DNA from: Pseudomonas sp. S04
GTDB lineage: Bacteria > Pseudomonadota > Gammaproteobacteria > Pseudomonadales > Pseudomonadaceae
NCBI RefSeq assembly: GCF_009834545.1
Contig: NZ_CP019427.1
Location: 4,470,001-4,534,000, forward strand
Reading direction: 5' to 3'
Length of the DNA: 64,000 nucleotides
Of the stretch, positions 17,248 to 34,782 are shown in pieces. Within the stretch, counting starts at the first letter, position 1, and each line of letters starts with the position of its first letter. The translations under genes and the position numbers were made by a program. The notes beneath the pieces are model-generated. The model did not search any database and was not told the DNA's origin. It saw only the letters and a program-made list of their open reading frames with translations.

Positions 17248-18518
17248 GAACACTTGACCTGCCAAGTCCGCCCCTCATTACTGGATCTGATACAGCATTG
17301 TACATAAACATCCCAACCCATCACCGTAAACCTGACGATAGAGATTGCCCAGCGATGGAGGGTCGCAAACGATTATGTACGCCGCCAGTACGCTCAACGA
17401 CAAAGGTTGCGAACAAAATTGATCCCGCCTCCAACTAACCTAGCAGGTGATCACAAAACCGCTCACACGTCTACATCCCGAGCCTGTCAGACGCCATGCT
17501 CGCGGTAATCGCAGGTCGAGCCATGCCTTGACAGCTCGCGGATGACCTCGACGAGCGGCAGGTCTGGCGGAATGGCTTGCGCTTGCGTCTCACCAGGCTT
17601 GGCGTGAGCACCTCACCCTCAAGCCGCTCAGCAACAGGCATTAGCGAACATTGTATTTTGCCGAAGAGCGCGACTTACGGTGTCGCAAATTCATCGACGC
17701 GCTCCGACTTACGGCCAAAAAATGCTGGCGTAATAGCGTACTCTTCCCTTCGAAATAATCGACCTTCGGCTCAGTGGCAAAGGTCATCGAGAAAAGTGAA
17801 AAACACCAAGTCGAACGCGGCCATTCTGGCTATCCAACTCGGCCAGAGCTTCGAGGTCGTCCACGGATTTTCGCGAGCCGCTCGCCATGGAGGAGGGATA
17901 GTTTTTTTCACTACTGCACCGGGCGCACGAGGGGCTGGCTCCCTAGAGAAATCGGGCCTCAGAAGCACGGATCAAGCCTCGGCTGAACTCAGGAATCATC
18001 AATGGTTACGAATCATTTAGGGGGGTTATACGACTTAATTCGAGGGTGCTACAATTGCTCCCTTACGTTTAGGATTCCATCGCTCCCAAGGGGCGAATGC
18101 CTATTATGGTTCAACCAAGAAAAACAACCGCCGAAGGTGCTTTGGAGAGCAGATCTGGAGATCCGCTGGTGAGCCAATTCAACACAGTACGGATTAACGT
18201 CAGTACGATGTATTGCCTAGAAAGTATCACCCGTGCGTTATCGCCTCCGAAACAACCTACGGAGGTATCTATTCAGAAAAAGCAAACCTTATCCAAGGTT
18301 CCAACCACACCCTACGCTAGCATTGACAAAAGCTTTTTGACGGATCCGCTCGAATCATTTACTACCTACGCCCCCCGCCAACCGCACGGTTTTAGCTCTA
18401 TACCAGCCCTCGCTGGGATGGTGAGGTGGTTTGCTATACCGGCAACTGGCTCTGCACTGAAACTATGCACGCGGATTATTGACGCAGGCAGAGCAAGCCC
18501 CCCCAAAGGATTCAACAA
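17248..18518. other. 1.27-kb gene-poor region between wbpM and wzm
   Basis: This is the divergent promoter region of wbpM and the wzm operon, much longer than needed for promoters. Open frames at 17577-18020 and 18097-18522 are short, have atypical composition and match nothing I recognise, so they are not called. A short transposase-like fragment lies at 17487-17576. The stretch looks like decayed insertion or gene-replacement debris; the second half (about 18030-18500) is probably untranslated leader of the wzm operon. Confidence 0.45.
17487..17576 (-). pseudogene. Possible IS66-type transposase remnant
   Basis: The minus strand reads 29 codons then a stop: IPPDLPLVEVIRELSRHG followed by STCDYREHGV. 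The pattern LP-V-VI-EL--H---TC---R-H resembles the N-terminal zinc-finger-side segment of IS66-family TnpC proteins. Just upstream (plus-strand 17577-17595) another frame encodes RRKRKP, which in IS66 precedes this segment, so a one-base frameshift is likely. No terminal repeats and no DDE domain were found. The call is tentative. Confidence 0.35.
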
Positions 18519-19379
18519 GTGAGTGTATCGATGCAAAAGGCTACGCCGATCAATCCACACAGCAGACATTCAACTTCCCCATTCACCCTGATTTCGTGTT
18601 TGTGGCGCAACCGCCAACTCATCCTCCAAATGACAAAACGCGAAGTAGTCGGGCGTTATCGTGGATCGGTGCTCGGCCTCGCCTGGTCTTTTTTCAATCC
18701 AGTCCTGATGCTATTGGTATACACATTTTTTTTCGCCGTCGTGTTCAAATCACGCTGGGGGACAGGAGGAACCGATAGCAAGACAGACTTCGCTGTAATA
18801 TTGTTCGTAGGCATGATTGTTCATGGACTGCTTGCAGAAATTCTTAATCGCTCTCCGAAGCTGATACTTGACAATGCAAACTATGTAAAAAAAGTTGTAT
18901 TTCCCATTGAAGTCCTACCTGCCATCAGTATATGCGTCGCATTATTTCATGCCACGATTAGCCTCGCTGTGCTACTGGTTGCGTTCCTGATTTTCAATGG
19001 TTTCATTCAGTGGACCGCTATATTCATACCGCTGGTAATATTACCACTTGTAATACTTTCACTGGGAGCTGCCTGGTTCCTCGCTTCGCTGGGCGTGTAT
19101 TTGCGCGACGTAGCCCAAACGATTGGGCTTTTCACCACCGTATTAATGTTTCTTTCTCCCGTTTTCTACCCCGTCACCTCATTACCTGAAGCGGTACGCC
19201 CGTGGTTAATGATCAACCCGCTGACCTTCATCATTGAGCAAGCTCGGGAAGTGATGATATGGGGCAAACTCCCGGACTTTCAGGGACTGGCAATTTACAC
19301 ACTTTGCGCAGTATTCATTGCATGGCTAGGTTATATCTGGTTCCAGAAAACAAGAAAGGGGTTTGCTGATGTCCTCTAA
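18519..19379 (+). CDS. wzm: Wzm, O-antigen ABC-2 type exporter permease
   Basis: Inner-membrane permease of 286 residues with about six membrane spans; with Wzt it exports completed undecaprenyl-linked polysaccharide to the periplasm. The cytoplasmic N-terminal segment contains the ABC-2 signature LTKREVVGRYRGS-like sequence (here MTKREVVGRYRGSVLGLAW), followed by the hydrophobic core and the late VLMFLSPVFYPV loop typical of KpsM/Wzm proteins. A GTG at 18519 preceded by AAAGGA at 8 bases is taken as the start; an ATG at 18531 is also possible. It is the first gene of a plus-strand operon ending at 28663, and wzt overlaps its end by 11 bases. Confidence 0.93.
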   Translation: MSVSMQKATPINPHSRHSTSPFTLISCLWRNRQLILQMTKREVVGRYRGSVLGLAWSFFNPVLMLLVYTFFFAVVFKSRWGTGGTDSKTDFAVILFVGMIVHGLLAEILNRSPKLILDNANYVKKVVFPIEVLPAISICVALFHATISLAVLLVAFLIFNGFIQWTAIFIPLVILPLVILSLGAAWFLASLGVYLRDVAQTIGLFTTVLMFLSPVFYPVTSLPEAVRPWLMINPLTFIIEQAREVMIWGKLPDFQGLAIYTLCAVFIAWLGYIWFQKTRKGFADVL

Positions 19380-20697
19380 TGACCTGGCAATTTCAGTTAC
19401 AGGCGTCTCGAAGGTTTACCATCTTTATGAAAAACCTCAAGACAGACTGAAACAAATTCTCTGGAAAAGCGCTGCCAATCCCAGCGACGAGTTCTGGGCG
19501 CTGCGGGATATCAACTTTGATGTAAAGAAGGGCGAGACCGTTGGCATTGTGGGGCGCAACGGCTCCGGTAAGTCCACGCTGTTGCAGATTATCTGCGGAA
19601 CCCTGACGCCTTCCCATGGCCACGTAGAGCGTCAAGGTCGCTTATCAGCCTTGCTTGAGCTCGGTTCAGGTTTCAACCCAGAGTTTACTGGCCGCGAGAA
19701 CGTTTACCTGAGCGCCTCGATTCTTGGATTGTCAAAAGAAGAAATTGATAATCGATTTGATAAAATTGCCGGTTTTGCTGACATTGGGCAGTTTATCGAC
19801 AGCCCTGTAAAACACTACTCAAGTGGTATGTTTGCCAGACTTGCATTCTCGGTATCTGTTCACGTTGAACCCGAAATATTGATCGTAGATGAAATTCTTG
19901 CTGTCGGCGATGCTGCATTCCAACGACGTTGCCTTTCGAAATTTTACGAAATACGTGATCGTGGCTGCACCATCCTTTTTGTGTCCCATGACCAATATCA
20001 AGTTAAGTCAGTGTGCGAAAGAGCGCTGTACCTCAAAGAAGGCCAACAGATCATGTTCGGTCCTGCGCCTAGAGTCATCGATCAATACATGATCGAAATG
20101 GAGGCTCAGGTTGCTCAAAATACTCCAGCTGCATTCACTGCCACGCAAGCAACAGCGACTGTCGAAAGTCACGTCGATTCAGACCCTGCCGAGTCAGGTG
20201 CGAGCAAGCCAAAAAGCGTCGCACCTAAAACAACTCTGAGTAGCAGCGAGTCAGCAGATCAACTGTTTAGAATTACGGATGTCCGCCTGACTGACACCGA
20301 AGGCACGCCCCTGGATACAGTGACAACCGGACAATCCGTACGTGTGAATTTTGATTTTATCGCGCTGGTGGATGCACCGCCGGAAGAAATCAGTTTCGTC
20401 TTCAACTTATATAGACATGATGAACTATATCTATGTGGCGCCACCACATTGATGGATAAAATTCCAGCCTACCGGTCCTCAAGCGCAGGAACCGTATCGA
20501 TTGACTTTGCAGATCTCCCTCTGTTGAGCGGTCAATACAAGTGGCGGGTAGCAATTAACGACAATGTTGGATTCATAACTTACGCAGAAGCAAAAAATGC
20601 GTGCTCGTTCCGTGTTGAAGATAATTTCAAGGCGGTTGGCATGTTAAGCCTTCCGCGACAGTGGAATTTTCAAGCAACCGAACTCAACAGTATTTGA
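19369..20697 (+). CDS. wzt: Wzt, O-antigen ABC exporter ATPase with carbohydrate-binding C-terminus
   Basis: ATPase of 442 residues. The nucleotide-binding domain has Walker A GRNGSGKST (62-70), signature SSGMF (151-155), Walker B ILIVDE (170-175) and the switch His207. After a linker of about 45 residues rich in Ala, Ser and Thr, residues about 290-440 form a beta-rich domain as in Wzt proteins whose C-terminus binds the capped non-reducing end of the glycan. This implies export recognises a terminal modification, and the next gene encodes a methyltransferase that could make it. The ATG at 19369 has AAAGGGG about 7 bases upstream and overlaps wzm. Confidence 0.94.
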   Translation: MSSNDLAISVTGVSKVYHLYEKPQDRLKQILWKSAANPSDEFWALRDINFDVKKGETVGIVGRNGSGKSTLLQIICGTLTPSHGHVERQGRLSALLELGSGFNPEFTGRENVYLSASILGLSKEEIDNRFDKIAGFADIGQFIDSPVKHYSSGMFARLAFSVSVHVEPEILIVDEILAVGDAAFQRRCLSKFYEIRDRGCTILFVSHDQYQVKSVCERALYLKEGQQIMFGPAPRVIDQYMIEMEAQVAQNTPAAFTATQATATVESHVDSDPAESGASKPKSVAPKTTLSSSESADQLFRITDVRLTDTEGTPLDTVTTGQSVRVNFDFIALVDAPPEEISFVFNLYRHDELYLCGATTLMDKIPAYRSSSAGTVSIDFADLPLLSGQYKWRVAINDNVGFITYAEAKNACSFRVEDNFKAVGMLSLPRQWNFQATELNSI

Positions 20698-20708
20698 ATA
20701 GGCCACAA

Positions 20709-21884
20709 ATGGAACGGTTAGATATCAACTCTGCTCCAGAGAGAGCGAACATAGAAGCGTCAATCCATTTCGCGAGATACTCGGTTGCCACGCCCTTTGT
20801 TAAAAATAAGCGAGTCCTGGATATCGCCTGCGGCGAGGGTTATGGAAGCTACCTTTTAAAACAGGCTGGGGCTGAAGAAGTAGTCGGCGTAGATGTATTC
20901 ACTGACGCAGTGAATCGTGCCACTCATTCATTTGGCGGTCCTGGAATTGAGTTTATTGCGGCGGACGCTACAACCATCGAAGGCAGGTTTCCGGCCGAAC
21001 ACTTTGACGTTATCGTTTCATGTGAAACCATCGAACACATTGAAGACCCGGTAGCCTACTTACATTCTCTGAAACGCATTGCAAAAAAAGATGCGATCAT
21101 TATCATCAGTTGTCCAAATGACTACTGGTACTTTCCGGAAGAGCATCAAAGCAACCCGTACCACTTGCGCAAATACCGATTCGAAGAGTTTCAGGAGCTC
21201 GCAAGCAGCGTGCTGGGAGACAACGTCAATTGGAGCATAGGAACCGCGGTCTTCGGATTCGGCTCAACGTCGCTAGATATCGAACGAGACTATGAAACTG
21301 TCCCCGATAGCTGGATGAAATTCAATTCAGTCCAAGGTGCATACCTGGTAAACGGCGGCGAGAAGCGGGAATTCAACCCTGAGAACTGCAGCTATTACTT
21401 TGGCATCTGGAATGCTTCTGAAATCACTAATGGCGCCGCTGTTTTCCCGGTAAATATGGACGCTTATGCGCGCATGGTACAGGCAATGGACGGTGCACTG
21501 CTCGTCGACGAACGGAAGAAGGCGGCGACACTGCTTGGGGATGAACGATTGAAGCTGGAAGCGCTCAACCAGGCTTTAACGACCCTTCAAATGGAAGCTG
21601 ATGTATTGAAGGCGGACTTGAGAAAAACACGACTTAACTATCAGGCAACGCTGACGGAAAACGAACTAGTAAAAGAACGACTGCATGCATTCAACTCTGC
21701 CCAGCACGCGTTGAGTGAAGTAGTGCACGGACTTCAGGCCGAAGTGGCTAAAGTAACTGCTGAGCGTGATCAGATGCGAGTCGGTTATTACCGATATCTG
21801 CGTTTGGGAGGACTGATTCCTCGTCCGGTTCGAGCGCTCATGAAAAAAGCCGTAAAAATTGTTCGCAGGAACCCAAATAAATGA
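20709..21884 (+). CDS. SAM-dependent methyltransferase with C-terminal coiled coil (WbdD-like chain terminator candidate)
   Basis: A 391-residue protein. The class I methyltransferase domain has motif I VLDIACGEGYG (36-46), an acidic VGVDVF strand end, and DVIVSCETIEHIEDP. From about residue 267 to 357 the sequence is strongly heptad-like (repeated Leu/Ala with Glu/Lys/Arg), a predicted coiled coil. The last 25 residues are basic and amphipathic (PRPVRALMKKAVKIVRR), possibly a membrane-contacting helix. In E. coli O8/O9a, WbdD uses this layout (methyltransferase or kinase, coiled-coil ruler, membrane anchor) to cap the chain and set its length. The ATG at 20709 follows the wzt stop by 11 bases; an upstream GTG at 20661 would overlap wzt. 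It overlaps the next gene by 4 bases. Confidence 0.85.
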   Translation: MERLDINSAPERANIEASIHFARYSVATPFVKNKRVLDIACGEGYGSYLLKQAGAEEVVGVDVFTDAVNRATHSFGGPGIEFIAADATTIEGRFPAEHFDVIVSCETIEHIEDPVAYLHSLKRIAKKDAIIIISCPNDYWYFPEEHQSNPYHLRKYRFEEFQELASSVLGDNVNWSIGTAVFGFGSTSLDIERDYETVPDSWMKFNSVQGAYLVNGGEKREFNPENCSYYFGIWNASEITNGAAVFPVNMDAYARMVQAMDGALLVDERKKAATLLGDERLKLEALNQALTTLQMEADVLKADLRKTRLNYQATLTENELVKERLHAFNSAQHALSEVVHGLQAEVAKVTAERDQMRVGYYRYLRLGGLIPRPVRALMKKAVKIVRRNPNK

Positions 21885-24097: not shown

Positions 24098-25393
24098 GTG
24101 AAAAAAACTCCATCGGCGACGAGTGGCATCAGAAAAACTGGCGTTGAAGGAAGCTCTAACTCGTTCGAACTTTTCGGAGAGATGGCAGACACGCTTCTGT
24201 ATTGGGTGAGCGAACTGCATCGCACGCTCATCGGCAACGGTGTCAAGCAGGTGTTCTTTCTCTCCAGAGAGGGGCAACCGCTCAAGCAAATGTTCGATCG
24301 ATATTGCGTTCGCGTGGGAGTTCCGATTCAGAGCCGTTACCTCGAGGTTTCTCGCAGGTCAACGCTGCTGCCTTCTCTGAATACGTTGAGTGAAGAACGG
24401 TTCGAAACGCTTTTCAGGCAATATCGGTGCATGTCGCTACTGGAGTTTCTATCGAGTCTTGGGCTGGATGAGTTCTGCGTGGAGCTGTCAGCCTTGCTGG
24501 GGCTGACGAACGAACAATTGAATCAAAGGCAAGAGGATTTTCCCGAGAGCGAACTCTTCTACCGCCTGAAGGCGTTACCACGATTCATAGAAATATATGA
24601 CGAGCAACGGCTGAGTCGTCAGAAGGCTTTTGAACAATATATTTCTGTGCTCTCGGAAGGTGATGTTCCCGAAAATCTTGTGGTCGTAGACGTCGGCTGG
24701 AAGGGCACGATCCAGGACAACCTTTATGCGCTGTTGTGCAAGGGACCGGCATCGCCAATCAAATCAGTCACCGGCTACTACATCGGGCTTATAGCACCAG
24801 GAGCAGCAGGGGCGGCAAACCTCAAACACGGTCTTCTATTTTCCTCCATTGCGGGCCGTACACCGCGCTTTCATGTATTCAATGAAAATCGTGCTCTGTT
24901 CGAAATACTCCTGGCAGCAGATCACGGCTCCGTGGCCAGCTACCTAATTGACACAGATGGCAAGGCCCTTGCCGTCCATGACACGTACCATGAGCAAGAG
25001 ATGGTGGAGGCTCTGGTGTTTCCTGTTCAGCGCTACCTCTTCGCTCGCTTTGACCAACTGCTGGACGCCATGACACAGCAAGCAGATGTTAAGTCGCTAC
25101 GTCTTGGGCAAATCGCTCGCAGCCATGCACGCCTGGTCTTCCAGCCTTCACAGCCCGAGATCGACTGGTTTTCTTCAGTATTTCATGTTGAAAACTACGG
25201 TGTATTTGAGCGCTCTTTCTTTACTGGCGTACACAAGGTCCCAAGCTTTTCTGCTAGGTTGAAGTTCATGTTCACCGTCCTGAGGCGCAACGGACGAGGA
25301 TTGCTTGGGTTCTGGCCATGGAAGAAGCTCGATGAGCGGGTGGGCCGCCCAATAGCCAACTTGTATGGACTAATCCGCTATTTTCAGAAGTAG
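24098..25393 (+). CDS. COG5610-type C-terminal domain protein lacking the HAD domain
   Basis: A 431-residue protein (from the GTG at 24098) that aligns with the C-terminal two thirds of the HAD protein at 26630-28663. Shared blocks in the same order: VFFLSREG (52-59), LEVSRRST (82-89) and VDVGWKGTIQDNL (197-209). No HAD motif precedes them. The open frame extends to a TTG at 23930 and ATG at 23936, but those extra residues are Ser/Thr/Arg-rich, lie over a hairpin and look non-coding; the start is uncertain. No signal peptide or clear membrane span. Flanked by glycosyltransferases, it is probably part of glycan assembly or modification, but I do not know the reaction. Confidence 0.7.
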   Translation: MKKTPSATSGIRKTGVEGSSNSFELFGEMADTLLYWVSELHRTLIGNGVKQVFFLSREGQPLKQMFDRYCVRVGVPIQSRYLEVSRRSTLLPSLNTLSEERFETLFRQYRCMSLLEFLSSLGLDEFCVELSALLGLTNEQLNQRQEDFPESELFYRLKALPRFIEIYDEQRLSRQKAFEQYISVLSEGDVPENLVVVDVGWKGTIQDNLYALLCKGPASPIKSVTGYYIGLIAPGAAGAANLKHGLLFSSIAGRTPRFHVFNENRALFEILLAADHGSVASYLIDTDGKALAVHDTYHEQEMVEALVFPVQRYLFARFDQLLDAMTQQADVKSLRLGQIARSHARLVFQPSQPEIDWFSSVFHVENYGVFERSFFTGVHKVPSFSARLKFMFTVLRRNGRGLLGFWPWKKLDERVGRPIANLYGLIRYFQK

Positions 25394-25400
25394 TCATAAA

Positions 25401-26633
25401 TTGAACGATAGAAAAATTTGCTTTCTCGTAGGCTCGATGGCTATCAGCGGTGGCACTTACGTCATCATTCAGCATGCCAGCTACTTGCGCAGACATGGAT
25501 ATGACGTAACGCTGGCAGTTCAGGAGCCTTTTTCGGCAGCGACACTTTCCTGGCATGACGAAGCGCCCAAGCTTCGTTGCCTGCCTATCGAAGAGGCCAA
25601 ACAAGAATCTTTCGACCTGGTCATCGCCACATGGTGGAAAACCGCTTTTGAGCTTGGCAATTTCGACGCCAGGAGGTATGCGTACTTCGTACAATCGATC
25701 GAGTCCAGATTTTATCCTGAATCGGAAATACCCTTGCGGGCTTTGGTGGACGCTACCTACCGCTTCCCCATCGAATACGTGACTGAAGCTACGTGGATCC
25801 AACAATATCTGAAGGACGATTTCAATCGGGATACTGCTCTGGTACGCAACGGTATTCGCAAGGATGTGTACTCAACACAGGGCGTAGCCAGCGCACCCCG
25901 CCCTACTGATGCGCAACCCAGGATCCTGGTAGAAGGGCATTTTGGTGTTTCATTCAAGAACACGGCTTTGGGTGTTCGATTAGCCAGAGAAGCCGGTGCA
26001 AAAGACATCTGGGTGCTGACGGGGTCTCCCATCAAGTGGCTTCCCGGGGTTTCGCGGGTGTTTTCTCGGGTACCAATGGTCAAGACTGCCGAAATTTATC
26101 GCTCTTGCGATATTTTGATCAAACTCAGTACGGTCGAAGGGATGTTCGGCCCACCGCTTGAGCTATTTCACTGCGGCGGCACCGCCGTAGTCTTTGATGT
26201 TTCCGGACATGACGAGTACATCGTCAACGGAGACAATGCGGTCGTGATCCCCACTGGAGACACTGACAGTGTCGTCAACGTCCTAAAAAAACTCATAAGC
26301 GATCGCACGGAGCTTTCACGGCTTCAAGAAGGGGCACGCCAAACGGCCGACAACTGGCCCTCCTGGCATGACTCTTCGGCTCTTTTCTGCGAATGGGTAG
26401 AGAAGTGTTTGGAAGGTCCGCTCATGGAAAAGTCTATTTTTACAGAGTTGACGGTAAAAGCATTCAACGAGTACTCAGCTCAAGAAAAACAGCGTCTCAA
26501 TACAAATCGCTGGGTCGTTCGCCGCCATAAACTCAGCGCGCTTTCCGCCAGACTCCCCGAGTCGCTGAAGCTTCGGATCAAACAACTGGAAGCGGTAGGT
26601 GAAGTGATTTTTGGTGGGCGAGAAGTACGATGA
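25401..26633 (+). CDS. GT4-like (GT-B fold) glycosyltransferase
   Basis: A 410-residue predicted cytoplasmic glycosyltransferase. The N-terminal strand and glycine loop KICFLVGSMAISGGTYV open the first Rossmann domain, FVQSIESRFYP is a characteristic mid-region, and the donor-side EX7E motif is EGMFGPPLE (246-254), followed by GGTAVVFDVSGHDEYI. A C-terminal helical tail of about 60 residues is basic and could contact the membrane. The start is a TTG at 25401, needed to keep the first beta strand; an ATG at 25437 would remove it. It begins 7 bases after the previous stop and overlaps the next gene by 4 bases (ATGA). Confidence 0.85.
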   Translation: MNDRKICFLVGSMAISGGTYVIIQHASYLRRHGYDVTLAVQEPFSAATLSWHDEAPKLRCLPIEEAKQESFDLVIATWWKTAFELGNFDARRYAYFVQSIESRFYPESEIPLRALVDATYRFPIEYVTEATWIQQYLKDDFNRDTALVRNGIRKDVYSTQGVASAPRPTDAQPRILVEGHFGVSFKNTALGVRLAREAGAKDIWVLTGSPIKWLPGVSRVFSRVPMVKTAEIYRSCDILIKLSTVEGMFGPPLELFHCGGTAVVFDVSGHDEYIVNGDNAVVIPTGDTDSVVNVLKKLISDRTELSRLQEGARQTADNWPSWHDSSALFCEWVEKCLEGPLMEKSIFTELTVKAFNEYSAQEKQRLNTNRWVVRRHKLSALSARLPESLKLRIKQLEAVGEVIFGGREVR

Positions 26634-28663
26634 TCTACAAAATCAAGACAGTTGATGTCTGGGACACCTTGCTTAGAAGAGATTGCCACCCTGAATGCAT
26701 CAAGCTGGCGACTGCCGCTCATGTCTATTTCGAGCTGCTTGGACACTTCAAACCACCCTATACGGGTTACTGGGATATCTATCGAGCACGGGTAGAGACC
26801 GAGGCCCGTCTTGCGCGAGAGGCTCGAGAAGCAAACAAGGACGAAGAGTACGAAATCGTTCATGTGCTCAAAGAATGGCTGAAGACAATACTGCTCTCTT
26901 CCTCCGATGAGAGCCTGCCTCAGCGCTTTGCCGACTATGAGCTTTCAGTAGAAGTGCGGCATACTTTTCAGGACCCGGATATCGAAGAGTTTCTCAAGCT
27001 GCACTCTGCCGAAAGAACAATATTCCTTTCCGATTTCTACATGAGCTCTGACATGCTCAAACACTTGCTCGAGCAGAAGGGCCTCAGTCATCTCTTCGAG
27101 GATGGCGTGAGCTCGTGCGACGTGGGCTTGAATAAACGCTCAGGAACGCTGTTCAAGCATGTACACGAGGTCTTCGGGATCACCCCTCACGAACATGTGC
27201 ATGTAGGCGATCACCCTTGGTCGGATGTGGAGTCTCCGGCGCAACTGGGTGTTACCGGCATTTCATTCGTGCCGGAAAAATCCCATGCCGACAGGAAAGA
27301 GCGAGAGAGCCTGTTTGTTTCGCGTGAAGCGCTGTTCCAACATCTTCGCCAGCTCAGTATCCAAGCAATGGCGCCATCTATACTTGCGCGGCAAAAGACC
27401 GAATCGACAGCTTTTCGTTTCGGGGTGGAAGCCGCTCCACTGTTCGTGGGCTTCGCCTTGTGGATCGCCGAACAGGCAATCGCTCAGCGTCTGGATCAAG
27501 TATTCTTTCTTACCCGAGAAGGCGAGTTCTTTCGCCGCATATACGAAATTATATTCCCAGATCAGACGCTTTTTGGGCATCAGTTGCCAGCTTATGCGGA
27601 GCTTGAAGTCAGCCGGCTCTCTACGTTCGTCGCCTCAATGGAAGATATCTCGAAGGATGAGTTCAATCGTATTTGGCGCTTGAACCGCTCACAAAAAGTT
27701 TCCGGACTGTTTTCCACCCTTGGCCTGGAATACTCCAACTTTTCTAATCTATTATCTGAGGTTGGGTTAAAGGCCACGGATGTTATTGAACGCCCCGAGG
27801 CAAACGAGTCATTAAGCAAGTTGATTCGGGCCCCGGAATTCACGGCTGCCGTCAACGAAAAAATATTGGAACAACGTGAGCTTTTGAATGAATACCTTAC
27901 AGAAAAAGGTATTTCGCAGAGCGATAAGGTTGGCCTGGTTGATATTGGCTGGCGCGGAACGATCCAGGATAATCTTGCGCGGATAAAGCCTGCTACACAC
28001 TTTCACGGGATGTACCTCGGCCTGCGTAAGATGTTAAATCCTCAGACGTCGAACGTTTCAAAATGTGCCTATGGTGCTGATGAAAGGGTTGATGCAGATA
28101 CAGGGCAGCTGTTTGAAGCGTTTGCTGTACTTGAAATGCTGTGCACTTCAAACTTGGGAAGCGCGGAGAAATACGTGCGATCGCAAGGCAAGGTTACTGC
28201 ACATCGCAACGTCTGTGCCGAGGAGAATAGTTCCCACAGTGAATTTTCCGTTCACTTTCAGGAAGGTGTCGCACTGGCGGCTCAAGTATGGGGACCGTAT
28301 CTGGAGCGTTACGTGGTGGGCGCTGCAGAACTGCATGCGTCGGCTGTGCATGTCTGGAAAAAACTCAGTGTCAATCCGAATCCCGACTTGGCAAAGATCT
28401 TTATCCAGACCCCTCAGCATGATGTTTTTGGCTTCGGCGATATTTTTCAGAAGAATCAAGCCCCGGCACTATCCACAATCTTTCTTTCACCATTTAGTGG
28501 CACGGCGCGCAGACAGGTGATGGACTATATCCGCCGAGTTCAATGGACCTCTGGAATCAAGCATCTCAATGGAATTGGCCCAGTGCACAAGGCCGTACTT
28601 ATTGCTCTCTTCACATTGGCCAACGCGGTCAAACGCTATCGGATGAAGTCCCGCAAAAGATAG
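26630..28663 (+). CDS. HAD-superfamily protein of the COG5610 type
   Basis: A 677-residue two-part protein. Residues 1-215 form a HAD domain: motif I VDVWDT (Asp9 nucleophile, Trp11 at the position usually held by the acid-base Asp, Thr13), motif II FLSDFYMSS (Ser134), Lys169, and motif IV GDHPWSD (193-199). Residues about 255-670 are the COG5610-type region with VFFLTREG (291-298), LEVSRLST (325-332) and VDIGWRGTIQDNL (437-449), shared with the protein at 24098-25393. Such proteins recur in polysaccharide gene clusters but I know of no assigned reaction. It is the last gene of the wzm operon. Aromatic replacement of the second motif I Asp is also seen in haloacid dehalogenases. Confidence 0.82.
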   Translation: MIYKIKTVDVWDTLLRRDCHPECIKLATAAHVYFELLGHFKPPYTGYWDIYRARVETEARLAREAREANKDEEYEIVHVLKEWLKTILLSSSDESLPQRFADYELSVEVRHTFQDPDIEEFLKLHSAERTIFLSDFYMSSDMLKHLLEQKGLSHLFEDGVSSCDVGLNKRSGTLFKHVHEVFGITPHEHVHVGDHPWSDVESPAQLGVTGISFVPEKSHADRKERESLFVSREALFQHLRQLSIQAMAPSILARQKTESTAFRFGVEAAPLFVGFALWIAEQAIAQRLDQVFFLTREGEFFRRIYEIIFPDQTLFGHQLPAYAELEVSRLSTFVASMEDISKDEFNRIWRLNRSQKVSGLFSTLGLEYSNFSNLLSEVGLKATDVIERPEANESLSKLIRAPEFTAAVNEKILEQRELLNEYLTEKGISQSDKVGLVDIGWRGTIQDNLARIKPATHFHGMYLGLRKMLNPQTSNVSKCAYGADERVDADTGQLFEAFAVLEMLCTSNLGSAEKYVRSQGKVTAHRNVCAEENSSHSEFSVHFQEGVALAAQVWGPYLERYVVGAAELHASAVHVWKKLSVNPNPDLAKIFIQTPQHDVFGFGDIFQKNQAPALSTIFLSPFSGTARRQVMDYIRRVQWTSGIKHLNGIGPVHKAVLIALFTLANAVKRYRMKSRKR

Positions 28664-31730: not shown

Positions 31731-32609
31731 CTAGTCCAGCAGCCTCTGCAGATACTGACCATAGCCAGTCTTCTTGAGACGCTGTGCCTGAGCACTCAAT
31801 TGCTCTGGGGTGATCCAGCCATTGTTGTAAGCGATCTCCTCCAGACAAGCTACTTTCAGTCCCTGACGCTGTTCGATCGTGCGCACGAAGTGACTGGCTT
31901 CCAGTAAAGACTCGTGCGTGCCGGTGTCGAGCCAGGCGAAACCGCGACCGAGCATTTCGACGTTCAGGGTATTCTGCTCAAGATAGGCGCGAGTTACATC
32001 CGTGATTTCCAGCTCGCCCCGCTCGGAGGGCTTGATGCCCTTGGCAATCTCGACAACCTGGTTATCGTAAAAATATAACCCTGTAACCGCGTAGTTTGAT
32101 TTGGGCTTGAGCGGTTTTTCCTCAATGCTAAGCGCTCGCCCCGATGCGTCAAACTCAACTACACCAAAACGCTCCGGATCGGAAACGTGATAACCAAAAA
32201 CCGTAGCACCGTGTTGCTGGGCGCTCGCCGCGCGCAGATTATCGGAAAAGTGCTGACCGTAAAAAATGTTGTCACCCAGGATCAGACAGCATGGGTCGTT
32301 GCCGATAAACTCTTCGCCAATAATGAATGCCTGGGCAAGGCCATCCGGGCTCGGCTGTTCGGCATAGCTTAGCTTGATGCCATAAAGACTACCGTCACCA
32401 AGAAGCTTACGAAAACTCGGCAGGTCTTCAGGCGTGGAAATGATCAGAACTTCACGCATACCCGCAAGCATCAGTACCGATAGCGGGTAGAAGATCATCG
32501 GCTTGTCATAGATCGGCAGCATCTGCTTGGACACGCCGAGCGTCAACGGGTGAAGTCGAGTGCCTGAGCCGCCTGCGAGGATGATGCCTTTACGATTTGT
32601 CGTGGTCAT
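31731..32609 (-). CDS. rfbA: Glucose-1-phosphate thymidylyltransferase
   Basis: RmlA/RfbA, 292 residues, makes dTDP-glucose from dTTP and glucose-1-phosphate, the first and feedback-controlled step toward dTDP-L-rhamnose. It has the nucleotidyltransferase signature [11 protein letters not shown] near the N-terminus, [14 protein letters not shown], and [10 protein letters not shown] with the metal-binding Asp. Length is normal. It overlaps rfbD by 4 bases, making rfbB-rfbD-rfbA a tightly coupled unit; the fourth gene, rfbC, is elsewhere (9385-9930). Confidence 0.96.
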
Positions 32610-33499
32610 TTATTCAGGACTTCCCTAAGCATTCGGGTTACACCAGTTTGCCAATCCGGTAAGCACAGAGAAAAACTGTCGCGCAGCTTTTGCGTATTCA
32701 GACGCGAATTCAGCGGGCGGCGTGCAGGTGTTGGATAGGCCGTGGTATCGATCGGATTGACTGCCGTCACTGCCAGTTGTTCACCCTGGCTGCGGGCGAA
32801 ATCGATCACATGACTAGCATAGCCGTGCCAGGACACTTCACCACCAGCAGCCAAGTGATAAAGGCCCGCGAGCTCAGGGTTTTGCATGACTTTCTGAACA
32901 GCCAGCGCGGTGATGTCTGCGATAAGCTCTGCCCCCGTAGGGGCCCCAATCTGATCAGCGATGATGCTCAAGGTCTCGCGCTCCCTGGCCAGTCGCAGCA
33001 TCGTCTTGGCGAAGTTATTGCCGCGAACCCCATAGACCCAACTGGTGCGAAAGATCAGGTACTTACACCCGGCCCCAATAATCGCCTGCTCACCGAGCAA
33101 CTTACTGGCGCCGTAGTGATTGACGGGGGCGACTGCATCTACCTCCGTCCATGGAACCAGGCCCTGCCCGCTGAAGACATAGTCGGTCGAGTAATGAATA
33201 AGCCAGGCATCGAGAGCTTTGGCTTCCACCGCCATGACCTGGCTCGCCTGACCATTCACACGGTCAGCCAGTTCGGTTTCGGATTCGGCCTTATCAACAG
33301 CTGTATAAGCAGCAGCGTTGACAATGACGTTGGGCTTGACCCGGCGGATTGTCGCGCGCAAGGCCTCGAGGTCGGACAGGTCGCCGCTCAAGCCATCGGA
33401 GGCATGACGATCCAGCGCAATCAACTCGCCAAGGGGTGCAAGAGAGCGCTGCAGTTCCCAGCCTACCTGGCCATTTTTCCCCAGCAGGAGGATTTTCAT
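32606..33499 (-). CDS. rfbD: dTDP-4-dehydrorhamnose reductase
   Basis: RmlD/RfbD, 297 residues, catalyses the last step to dTDP-L-rhamnose with NAD(P)H. It has the dinucleotide motif [22 protein letters not shown], the STDYVFSG segment and catalytic YGASK. The ATG at 33499 gives the canonical MKILLLG start and a 4-base overlap with rfbB; a longer frame to 33574 would cut into rfbB and is rejected. Confidence 0.95.
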
Positions 33500-34572
33500 G
33501 CCTTGCTCGACCGATCCGCGTAGTTCTGGTCGATCCACTGCTGGTAGCTTCCGCTCTTCACGTGATCCACCCACTCAGTGTGGGTTAGATACCATTCGAC
33601 GGTCTTGCGGATGCCGGTTTCAAAAGACTCTTGCGGCGTCCAACCCAGCTCACGCTGGATTTTGCTGGCATCGATCGCGTAGCGCTGATCGTGACCCGGG
33701 CGATCCTGAACGAAAGTGATCAGGCTGGCGTGCGGGCAATGAGGAGAATCCGGACGCAGCTCATCGAGTAGTGCGCACAGGGCGCGTACGACCTCGATAT
33801 TTTGTTTTTCGTTATGGCCACCGATGTTGTAGGTCTCGCCAATGACACCTTCGGTCACGACTTTATACAGCGCCCGCGCATGGTCCTCGACATAGAGCCA
33901 GTCACGCACCTGGTTACCTTTGCCATACACCGGCAATGCCTTGCCTTCCAGCGCATTGAGAATGATCAGCGGAATCAGTTTCTCGGGAAAGTGGCACGGC
34001 CCGTAGTTGTTCGAGCAGTTGGTGACCAGGGTAGGCAGGCCATAGGTACGCGCCCAGGCACGAACCAGATGATCAGAGCTGGCCTTGCTGGCCGAGTACG
34101 GCGAGCTTGGCTGATAGGGCGTGGTTTCGGTGAAGAGGTCTTGCGGGCCTTCGAGGTCACCATAAACTTCGTCAGTCGAAATATGGTGAAATCGGAAACT
34201 CGCCTTGCGACCATCGTCCAGCGCTGCCCAGTAGTGACGCGCGGCTTCAAGCAGCGTGTAGGTGCCAATGATGTTGGTCTGGATAAATTCGGATGGGCCG
34301 CTGATCGAACGATCGACGTGGGATTCCGCGGCCAGGTGCATGATGGCATCTGGTTGCTGTTCACGCAGGACACGATCGATCTGCTCGCGATCACAAATAT
34401 CGACGTGCTCGAATAGATAACGGGCGTTTTGGCTGACTTCAGCCAAAGACTCAAGGTTGCCCGCATACGTGAGCTTATCGACATTAACGACCGCGTCATT
34501 CGTGTTGGAAATGATATGGCGAATGACCGCCGAACCGATAAATCCTGCACCGCCGGTTACTAGAATTTTCAC
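33496..34572 (-). CDS. rfbB: dTDP-glucose 4,6-dehydratase
   Basis: RmlB/RfbB, 358 residues, converts dTDP-glucose to the 4-keto-6-deoxy intermediate. The motifs [13 protein letters not shown], the STDEVYGDL active-site segment with the catalytic acids, and [10 protein letters not shown] are all present. The start is taken as the GTG at 34572 ([10 protein letters not shown]), which fits the family N-terminus; the frame extends further but the added residues are not family-like. First gene of the minus-strand polysaccharide operon, with about 210 bases of upstream DNA before lapA that may hold its promoter. Confidence 0.95.
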
Positions 34573-34782
34573 GCGAAAGCATACCCTTGAGTTGCAGACA
34601 GCGTCGCTACCGGACGGCCGTCTAATCCATGAATGCATCAGTCGTTTTTTGTCAGGTTCAGTCCGACCGATGTGAGGCCCAATCATTTGCGGACGATTGC
34701 TGCAATTTACCGCTCAATCACGACTCACTAATGGATATGGGCACCCTGCAGCCAAAGCCAGGGGCATGCCAAAGGTGCTCCG

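What the first reader, a model, noticed from the sequence alone, without database searches (positions are those of the whole stretch)
24098..28663. Paired COG5610-domain proteins, one with and one without a HAD domain, interleaved with glycosyltransferases
The proteins at 24098-25393 and 26630-28663 share three ordered blocks: VFF-L-S/T-REG, LEVSR-ST, and VD-I/V-GW-K/R-GTIQDNL. Only the second has a HAD domain. The two are separated by a GT4 gene with coupled starts, so they were probably retained together. I know no assigned reaction for the shared C-terminal domain; its invariant Arg/Glu/Asp-rich loops suggest an enzyme. A HAD phosphatase-like half acting with a second catalytic half on a polysaccharide, plus a stand-alone copy of that half, is a candidate undescribed glycan-modification module.
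Basis: partly seen in the sequence, partly recalled or inferred. Interest (0 to 1): 0.7.

Follow-up and report, generated by a model that had tools for sequence, protein, structure and literature searches.

The report
Two ribosyltransferases sharing one phosphatase
Two neighbouring Pseudomonas genes look like known enzymes that build ribose into a surface sugar chain, but only one carries the phosphatase normally needed, and the pattern recurs in other bacteria, suggesting that two transferases share one phosphatase.

Summary
In detail: P0001 (24098-25393) and the C-terminal half of P0002 (26630-28663) are homologous (BLASTP E 4e-20; hhalign 99.6%) and only P0002 has a HAD domain. The reading 'undescribed enzyme' is wrong. 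Both match the solved ribofuranosyl transferase 7shg (P0001 E 1.6e-67; P0002 E 1.1e-37, both domains). The shared half is gPRT, the PRPP-dependent glycan phosphoribosyltransferase; the HAD half is PRP, the phosphatase that removes the 5-phosphate. The three blocks align with its PRPP-binding loops. The locus looks like an ABC-exported O-polysaccharide cluster.

What remains unusual is the pairing. The phosphatase-less gPRT is an old family under purifying selection, also found on Pseudomonas aeruginosa plasmids. Of 20 phosphatase-less gPRT genes found, 19 have a PRP on the same fetched stretch; for the other it lies on another contig of the draft genome. Of 17 loci with two gPRTs, 15 have one PRP, on either partner. 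Loss happened repeatedly. I infer that one PRP serves two acceptor-specific gPRTs in trans, giving two ribofuranose linkages per repeat unit. This is a new variant of a known system.

The parts
24098..25393 (+). Stand-alone gPRT (P0001, 431 aa): glycan phosphoribosyltransferase without PRP domain
   Evidence: 7shg_A residues 290-637, E 1.6e-67; profile 328.8 bits; no HAD domain; no PRP remnant upstream
24251..24274 (+). Block 1, VFFLSREG (PRPP loop 1; S56 R57 E58)
   Evidence: translation; aligned to the SRD of Bcs3, which PMC10299916 numbers S678-R679-D680
24341..24364 (+). Block 2, LEVSRRST (loop 2; S85 R86)
   Evidence: translation; aligned to the SR of Bcs3, numbered S707-R708
24686..24724 (+). 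Block 3, VDVGWKGTIQDNL (loop 3; D198)
   Evidence: translation; aligned to the E818 region of Bcs3
25401..26633 (+). GT4 glycosyltransferase between the pair
   Evidence: PF00534 E 9e-12; best match 57-92% identical in all 9 other members of the paired clade, between the two genes in 8 of 9
26630..28663 (+). Dual-domain PRP-gPRT ribofuranosyltransferase (P0002, 677 aa)
   Evidence: 7shg_A residues 38-578 with the A2 profile, E 3.3e-55; single-sequence E 1.1e-37
26630..27325 (+). PRP (HAD phosphatase) domain of P0002, about residues 1-232: D9, S134, K169, D194, D199
   Evidence: PF00702; these residues invariant or at least 90% conserved in 20 aligned rows
27401..28309 (+). gPRT domain of P0002, about residues 258-560
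   Evidence: homologous to P0001 and to 7shg
18519..19379 (+). wzm, ABC-2 permease
   Evidence: PF01061
19363..20697 (+). wzt, ABC ATPase with C-terminal glycan-binding domain
   Evidence: PF00005 and PF14524 Wzt_C
20661..21884 (+). Methyltransferase followed by probable coiled coil; likely chain terminator
   Evidence: PF08241 E 8.5e-18; weak, below-cutoff coiled-coil-type hits at about 296-378; role inferred from the WbdD / ORF6-O7 type (PMC11231755)
21881..23926 (+). Two-domain GT2-GT4 glycosyltransferase
   Evidence: PF00535 and PF00534

Best explanation
P0001 and P0002 are two ribofuranosyl-adding enzymes of an ABC transporter-dependent O-polysaccharide cluster. Each gPRT domain transfers beta-ribofuranosyl-5-phosphate from PRPP to its own acceptor sugar on the growing chain. 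The single PRP (HAD) domain, carried by P0002, then removes the 5-phosphate from both products: in cis for P0002, in trans for P0001. The GT4 and GT2-GT4 enzymes add the remaining sugars, the methyltransferase/coiled-coil protein ends the chain, and Wzm/Wzt export it. Shown here: homology, conserved loops and HAD motifs, co-inheritance, and the recurring two-gPRT-one-PRP pattern. Inferred: PRPP use by these two proteins, dephosphorylation in trans, two ribofuranose linkages in the repeat unit, and the roles of the neighbouring genes.
For: Both proteins match ribofuranosyl transferase 7shg and Bcs3. Loop residues that bind PRPP in Bcs3 (docking and mutants, passages) are conserved in 10 of 10 HAD-less members of the paired clade examined. 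HAD motif residues are intact in P0002 relatives. 20 HAD-less gPRT genes (listed): 19 have a PRP-bearing ORF on the same fetched stretch; the 20th (L136) sits in a draft genome whose PRP-gPRT is on another contig. 17 loci with two gPRTs: 15 have one PRP, on the P0002-type partner in 10, on the P0001-type partner in 4, on another type in 1. PRP presence changes repeatedly: 5 changes, all 5 forced by starred branches, on a 70-row tree. Distances of the two partners agree (Mantel r 0.94, permutation p 3e-5, 10 loci). Four loci hold a PRP and a gPRT on separate neighbouring polypeptides (L062-L064; L138, weak gPRT score). Published: separated Bcs3 pieces, inactive alone, are active when combined (PMC10299916, passages). 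P0001 is under purifying selection (dN/dS 0.16 against L003).
Against: No biochemistry and no glycan structure is known to me for this locus. L122 has two dual-domain enzymes in one locus, so a second PRP is not always lost; L064 has two PRPs. L136 has no PRP on the 13 kb read. The HAD-less proteins of L019 and L024 lack the loop-1 Arg (LSSEG, LSGEG), so not every HAD-less copy need be active. The 41 loci were found by patterns from the HAD-less family, which biases the counts towards it. On a larger, quicker tree only 3 of 6 changes are forced. The Mantel result would also follow from clusters simply being inherited whole.
Confidence: 0.66

Rival explanations
1. P0001 is an active gPRT whose product keeps its 5-phosphate, so the glycan carries phosphorylated ribofuranose (as a branch, a cap or a phosphodiester site); the PRP of P0002 acts only on its own product.
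For: P0001 has no phosphatase of its own, and the two steps are separable: the phosphorylated intermediate could be isolated with Cj1432 (PMC12096443).
Against: If phosphate were meant to stay, some HAD-less loci should lack any PRP; 19 of 20 have one on the same stretch. In L062 and L063 the only gPRT and the only PRP seen in the 20 kb are on separate neighbouring proteins, which points to action in trans.
Confidence: 0.13
2. P0001 has lost activity and serves as a structural partner or scaffold for P0002 in a polymerase complex.
For: Partners are co-inherited; in K. pneumoniae O4 and O7 the ribofuranosyltransferase was tested for, and is described as, part of a protein complex with other polymerase modules (PMC11231755, passages). 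HAD-less proteins of L019 and L024 have lost a loop residue.
Against: The PRPP loops are conserved in 10 of 10 members of the window's clade, and purifying selection acts on the gene.
Confidence: 0.07
3. P0001 is active but its product is dephosphorylated by an unrelated housekeeping phosphatase; the nearby PRP is coincidental to P0001.
For: Unrelated phosphatases do this job elsewhere (Rv3807c in the mycobacterial pathway; PMC11127046, passages).
Against: It does not explain why phosphatase-less gPRTs have a PRP beside them in 19 of 20 cases.
Confidence: 0.09
4. One reading: an undescribed glycan-modification module with an unassigned reaction in the C-terminal half.
For: No Pfam or NCBIfam model reaches its cut-off on the C-terminal half of P0002 or on P0001.
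Against: Strong sequence matches to a solved and published ribofuranosyl transferase family.
Confidence: 0.03

Closest known systems
Dual-domain PRP-gPRT ribofuranosyltransferases: Thermobacillus composti 7shg; Klebsiella pneumoniae O4 ORF5 and O7 ORF7
   Same: P0002 has the same domain order and matches 7shg over both domains. P0001 matches the gPRT half even better. The setting (wzm/wzt, methyltransferase with probable coiled coil, further glycosyltransferases) resembles K. pneumoniae O7 as described in PMC11231755 (passages). The K. pneumoniae sequences themselves were not compared; that 7shg is the T. composti protein is recalled and fits a passage of PMC10299916.
   Different: K. pneumoniae O4 and O7 are described with one ribofuranosyltransferase each. 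Here there are two gPRTs and one PRP.
Haemophilus influenzae type b Bcs3 (CroT-CrpP-CriT)
   Same: CriT is a homologue of the gPRT half and CrpP of the HAD half. Loop residues correspond.
   Different: Bcs3 is one polypeptide with a ribitol-phosphate transferase and one CriT per CrpP. The acidic pair is D680/E818 in Bcs3 and E58/D198 in P0001.
Campylobacter jejuni Cj1432 (GT4-PRP-gPRT)
   Same: Published gPRT and PRP steps, with a GT4 activity (PMC12096443). Sequence not compared here.
   Different: Three domains in one polypeptide; one gPRT and one PRP.
Citrobacter youngae ORF15-type polyprenyl phosphoribose synthases (PRP + UbiA-type domain)
   Same: A PRP domain removing a ribose 5-phosphate (PMC11127046, passages).
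   Different: The transferase is a membrane protein described as unrelated to gPRT, in a pathway giving alpha-linked ribofuranose.

Membership tests
gPRT (glycan phosphoribosyltransferase) - P0001 | Sequence homology over the gPRT domain of a solved ribofuranosyl transferase | tested here: met
   7shg_A 290-637, E 1.6e-67; profile E 3.9e-97
gPRT (glycan phosphoribosyltransferase) - P0001 | PRPP-binding loops: S-R-acid, S-R, and acid in the VD/E..G..QD loop | tested here: met
   S56 R57 E58, S85 R86, D198; 10 of 10 HAD-less clade members keep SREG, SR and VDVGWKG[TS]IQD
gPRT (glycan phosphoribosyltransferase) - P0001 | Linked PRP phosphatase in the same polypeptide (prototype architecture) | tested here: not met
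   No HAD hit, no upstream remnant. So it is a gPRT by homology but not a prototype dual-domain ribofuranosyltransferase
[quoted passage not shown]
   Needs purified protein and acceptors
gPRT (glycan phosphoribosyltransferase) - P0001 and P0002 | Characteristic gPRT fold | not tested
   Structure prediction was busy, then switched off
Dual-domain PRP-gPRT ribofuranosyltransferase - P0002 | N-terminal HAD PRP followed by gPRT | tested here: met
   A2 profile vs 7shg_A 38-578, E 3.3e-55; vs Bcs3, E 5.8e-15
Dual-domain PRP-gPRT ribofuranosyltransferase - P0002 | HAD catalytic motifs, with only the first Asp of motif I kept, as in CrpP | tested here: met
   D9 (W11 at +2), S134, K169, D194, D199; comparison with CrpP D386 from PMC10299916 passages; motifs II-IV placed from general knowledge of the HAD superfamily
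ABC transporter-dependent O-polysaccharide locus | wzm, wzt with C-terminal CBM, glycosyltransferases | tested here: met
   PF01061, PF00005 + PF14524, PF00535/PF00534
ABC transporter-dependent O-polysaccharide locus | Coiled-coil chain terminator | tested here: inconclusive
   Methyltransferase domain clear (PF08241), coiled coil only suggested by weak below-cutoff hits; terminator role inferred

The most novel reading that the evidence does not exclude
Bacterial polysaccharide loci repeatedly evolve a 'two gPRT, one PRP' polymerase in which one phosphatase domain serves two acceptor-specific phosphoribosyltransferases, possibly as a hetero-oligomer in which the phosphatase reaches across to the HAD-less partner. 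The PRP is missing from either partner in different lineages. Surveys that use the PRP as marker would overlook the second gPRT and so miss one ribofuranose linkage per repeat unit.
Probability: 0.55. Interest if true: 0.55.

Novelty: new variant of a known kind. Interest (0 to 1): 0.42.

Why it matters
Ribofuranose-adding enzymes have been catalogued with the phosphatase domain as marker (PMC11127046, passages). P0001 has no Pfam or NCBIfam name, its 120 listed relatives have no precomputed Pfam domain, and those with a given name are called 'hypothetical protein' (plasmid records likewise). So a class of sugar-adding enzymes is unlabelled in O-antigen-type loci, including clusters on Pseudomonas aeruginosa plasmids. 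If one phosphatase serves two transferases, glycan prediction from sequence gains a rule (count gPRTs, not PRPs) and the order of transfer and dephosphorylation becomes testable. A related mismatch is in print: the E. coli K16 capsule has a Ribf-Ribf-Kdo repeat but the same predicted domains as Ribf-Kdo types (PMC13171606, passages).

Tried and rejected
Undescribed reaction: rejected because of the 7shg and Bcs3 matches.

Phosphatase hopping from one partner to the other: not supported. In the PRP tree, PRPs of P0002-type proteins form one clade (100/100) apart from those of P0001-type duals (bootstrap not fully settled). Loss on one side or the other is simpler; gain of a PRP by the P0002 lineage is not excluded, since its HAD-less members are basal.

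Recent tandem duplication of P0001/P0002: rejected. 27% identity, deep separate clades.

Rows dropped: one search dropped L042 (short gPRT match), L040 (cut by contig end) and second fragments in L025, L038, L039 (split ORFs, left unjoined). L139, L140 and L148 have a PRP with partial or no gPRT match and were not counted. Matching genomes not fetched: 42 of 56, and, 5 of 18, matched only a HAD-type stretch (model positions about 95-280, mostly 145-220; I judged these ordinary HAD phosphatases and did not check them).

Structure prediction and fold search were not possible. No published account of gPRTs sharing a PRP was found in the listings of searches or in the passages read; two listed papers (PMC11800397, PMC12887879) were seen in the listing only. 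Kelly et al. 2022 (Nat Chem Biol), the founding paper, is not held and was not read.
Full report
Observation. The two ORFs, the three blocks, the GT4 between them and the HAD domain in P0002 alone are all as described. The similarity of P0001 to the C-terminal half of P0002 is real (BLASTP E 4e-20; hhalign 99.6% probability over 267 columns).

Identity. A sequence search of solved structures settles the family. P0002 matches 7shg_A 'Ribofuranosyl transferase' over residues 6-547 (E 1.1e-37) and Hib Bcs3 (E 2.2e-11). P0001 matches 7shg_A 290-637, the transferase half, at E 1.6e-67, and Bcs3 weakly (E 5.7e-4). Profiles of both families strengthen this (7shg: E 3.3e-55 and 3.9e-97). From PMC11127046 (passages): these enzymes join a gPRT domain, which transfers beta-ribofuranosyl-5-phosphate from PRPP, to a HAD-family PRP domain that removes the phosphate. 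PMC10299916 (passages) names the loop residues of Bcs3: S678, R679, D680; S707, R708; E818. In P0001 they are S56-R57-E58, S85-R86 and D198; the acidic pair is Glu/Asp rather than Asp/Glu, as it also is in 7shg. Other Bcs3 residues named there (R712, T825, E874) are not matched by an identical residue or could not be placed. P0002 keeps the HAD motif residues D9, S134, K169, D194, D199.

Setting. Upstream lie wzm, wzt with a Wzt_C domain, a methyltransferase with weak coiled-coil-type hits and a GT2-GT4 protein. On the minus strand downstream lie a WecA-like transferase and an epimerase, then a GT2 and genes that Pfam matches suggest are rmlA, rmlD and rmlB. This fits an ABC-exported, methyl-terminated O-polysaccharide of the K. 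pneumoniae O7 type (PMC11231755, passages). That the glycan contains rhamnose or galactose is only a guess from neighbouring genes.

The pair elsewhere. The protein search matched 381 proteins to P0001 among 8000 scored candidates; the 120 listed are 411-443 aa, without a precomputed Pfam domain. Of the 120 listed clusters for each protein, 39 longest-contig lengths (the window's own genome among them) are shared between the two lists, an indirect sign that both lie on the same contigs. In Pseudomonas the pair is rare: 2 of 298 genomes, the own genome included (6 of 298 have any gPRT match). Within the paired clade of 10 loci (window, L003-L008, L010, L066, L067), the order gPRT-GT4-PRP-gPRT holds in 9; in L010 the dual is on the other strand. 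Of the 9 loci other than the window, 8 also have wzm and wzt matches; L008 has neither in its 21 kb, and the GT2-GT4 protein is matched in 5 (L003, L004, L007, L010, L067). Partner distances agree (Mantel r 0.94, p 3e-5), though inheritance of whole clusters alone would give this. The pair is on 7 P. aeruginosa plasmid records, which may be close relatives of one another, and one Rhizobium rosettiformans plasmid (two read in detail). A P0002-type dual without a P0001 match exists on E. coli, Citrobacter, Enterobacter and Serratia plasmids (one read in detail, L068).

One phosphatase, two transferases. I collected gPRT loci in four ways: 41 genome-contig loci found with P0001-family patterns; 38 stretches from genomes that matched (one, L065, repeats L003); three plasmid regions; and the window. 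Hit rates were 6 of 298, 9 of 398, 56 of 369 and 18 of 385 genomes; in the last two most low-scoring matches are plain HAD stretches and were not fetched. HAD-less gPRT genes number 20: window, L003-L008, L010, L018, L019, L021, L024, L062-L064, L066, L067, L123, L136, L138. In 19 of 20 a PRP-bearing ORF lies on the same stretch. The exception, L136, is a 13-kb piece of a fragmented draft (350 contigs, 83% complete); the same genome has a P0002-type dual at the end of another contig (L135). Loci with two gPRTs number 17; 15 have one PRP. The PRP is on the P0002-type partner in 10, on the P0001-type partner in 4 (L018, L019, L024, L123) and on another type in L021. The two others are L122 (two duals) and L064 (a dual, plus a gPRT beside an RgpF-PRP fusion). 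In L062, L063 and L064 the HAD-less gPRT (344-346 aa) abuts a 660-682 aa protein with a C-terminal PRP; its other part matches RgpF in the two scanned, L062 and L064. In L138 a 254-aa stand-alone PRP precedes a weakly scoring gPRT (58 bits).

Evolution. On a 70-row gPRT tree, presence or absence of the PRP needs 5 changes, all forced by starred branches; the window's HAD-less clade is nested inside duals, with a Cupriavidus dual as sister (100/98). A larger quick tree (94 rows) needs 6 changes, 3 forced, with several long branches. The PRP tree separates P0002-type from P0001-type PRPs (100/100, bootstrap not settled), which speaks against the PRP moving between partners. P0001 is under purifying selection between the window and its nearest relative (dN/dS 0.16; P0002 0.09; GT4 0.08).

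Mechanism. The simplest reading is that each gPRT makes its own ribofuranosyl-5-phosphate linkage and the one PRP clears both. It needs the PRP to work in trans. This has support in print: separated Bcs3 pieces (CroT-CrpP and CriT) were inactive alone but active when combined, and CrpP contacts CriT of the other protomer (PMC10299916, passages). I recall that Kelly et al. 2022 described the PRP as more promiscuous than the gPRT; that paper was not available, so this is a lead only. Retained phosphate on the P0001 product is the main rival.

Limits. The survey is biased towards the P0001 family (patterns), genomes are samples, HMM thresholds were mine, and no structure model could be made. PRPP use, trans action and two ribofuranose residues per repeat are inferences.

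Verdict.

Noticed in passing
L066 (NZ_CP039294.1) and 6 further P. aeruginosa plasmid records: Large P. aeruginosa plasmids carry the gPRT pair; the one read in detail has a whole wzm/wzt polysaccharide cluster with galE, epimerases, a WecA-like and a WbpM-like gene: apparently a plasmid-borne surface polysaccharide.
   Followed up: partly
L068 (NZ_CP074003.1) and related plasmids of Citrobacter, Enterobacter, Serratia: A P0002-type PRP-gPRT gene recurs on enterobacterial plasmids without a P0001 match; in the one read, it sits in a compact cluster (GT4, wzm, wzt, two further proteins).
   Followed up: partly
L062, L063, L064: PRP domain at the C-terminus of a larger protein (RgpF-type in L062 and L064; L063 not scanned), directly beside a 344-346 aa gPRT-only gene: a split ribofuranosyltransferase.
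   Followed up: partly
L019 11961-13670; L024 12465-13724: HAD-less P0002-type gPRTs that lack the loop-1 Arg (LSSEG / LSGEG); activity doubtful.
   Followed up: no
L122 6955-9030 and 9171-11861: Two adjacent dual-domain PRP-gPRT genes in one locus, an exception to one PRP per pair.
   Followed up: no
window 18097-18522: 141-aa ORF before wzm without any Pfam or NCBIfam match at E 0.1; partly conserved (64% over 61 of 141 aa) before wzm in L003.
   Followed up: no
window 31731-34686, minus strand: rmlA-, rmlD- and rmlB-like genes near the cluster hint at rhamnose in the glycan.
   Followed up: no
literature, E. coli K16 capsule (PMC13171606): A Ribf-Ribf-Kdo repeat with the same predicted domains as Ribf-Kdo types; a search for HAD-less gPRTs elsewhere in that genome could test the authors' suggestion of an additional transferase.
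   Followed up: no
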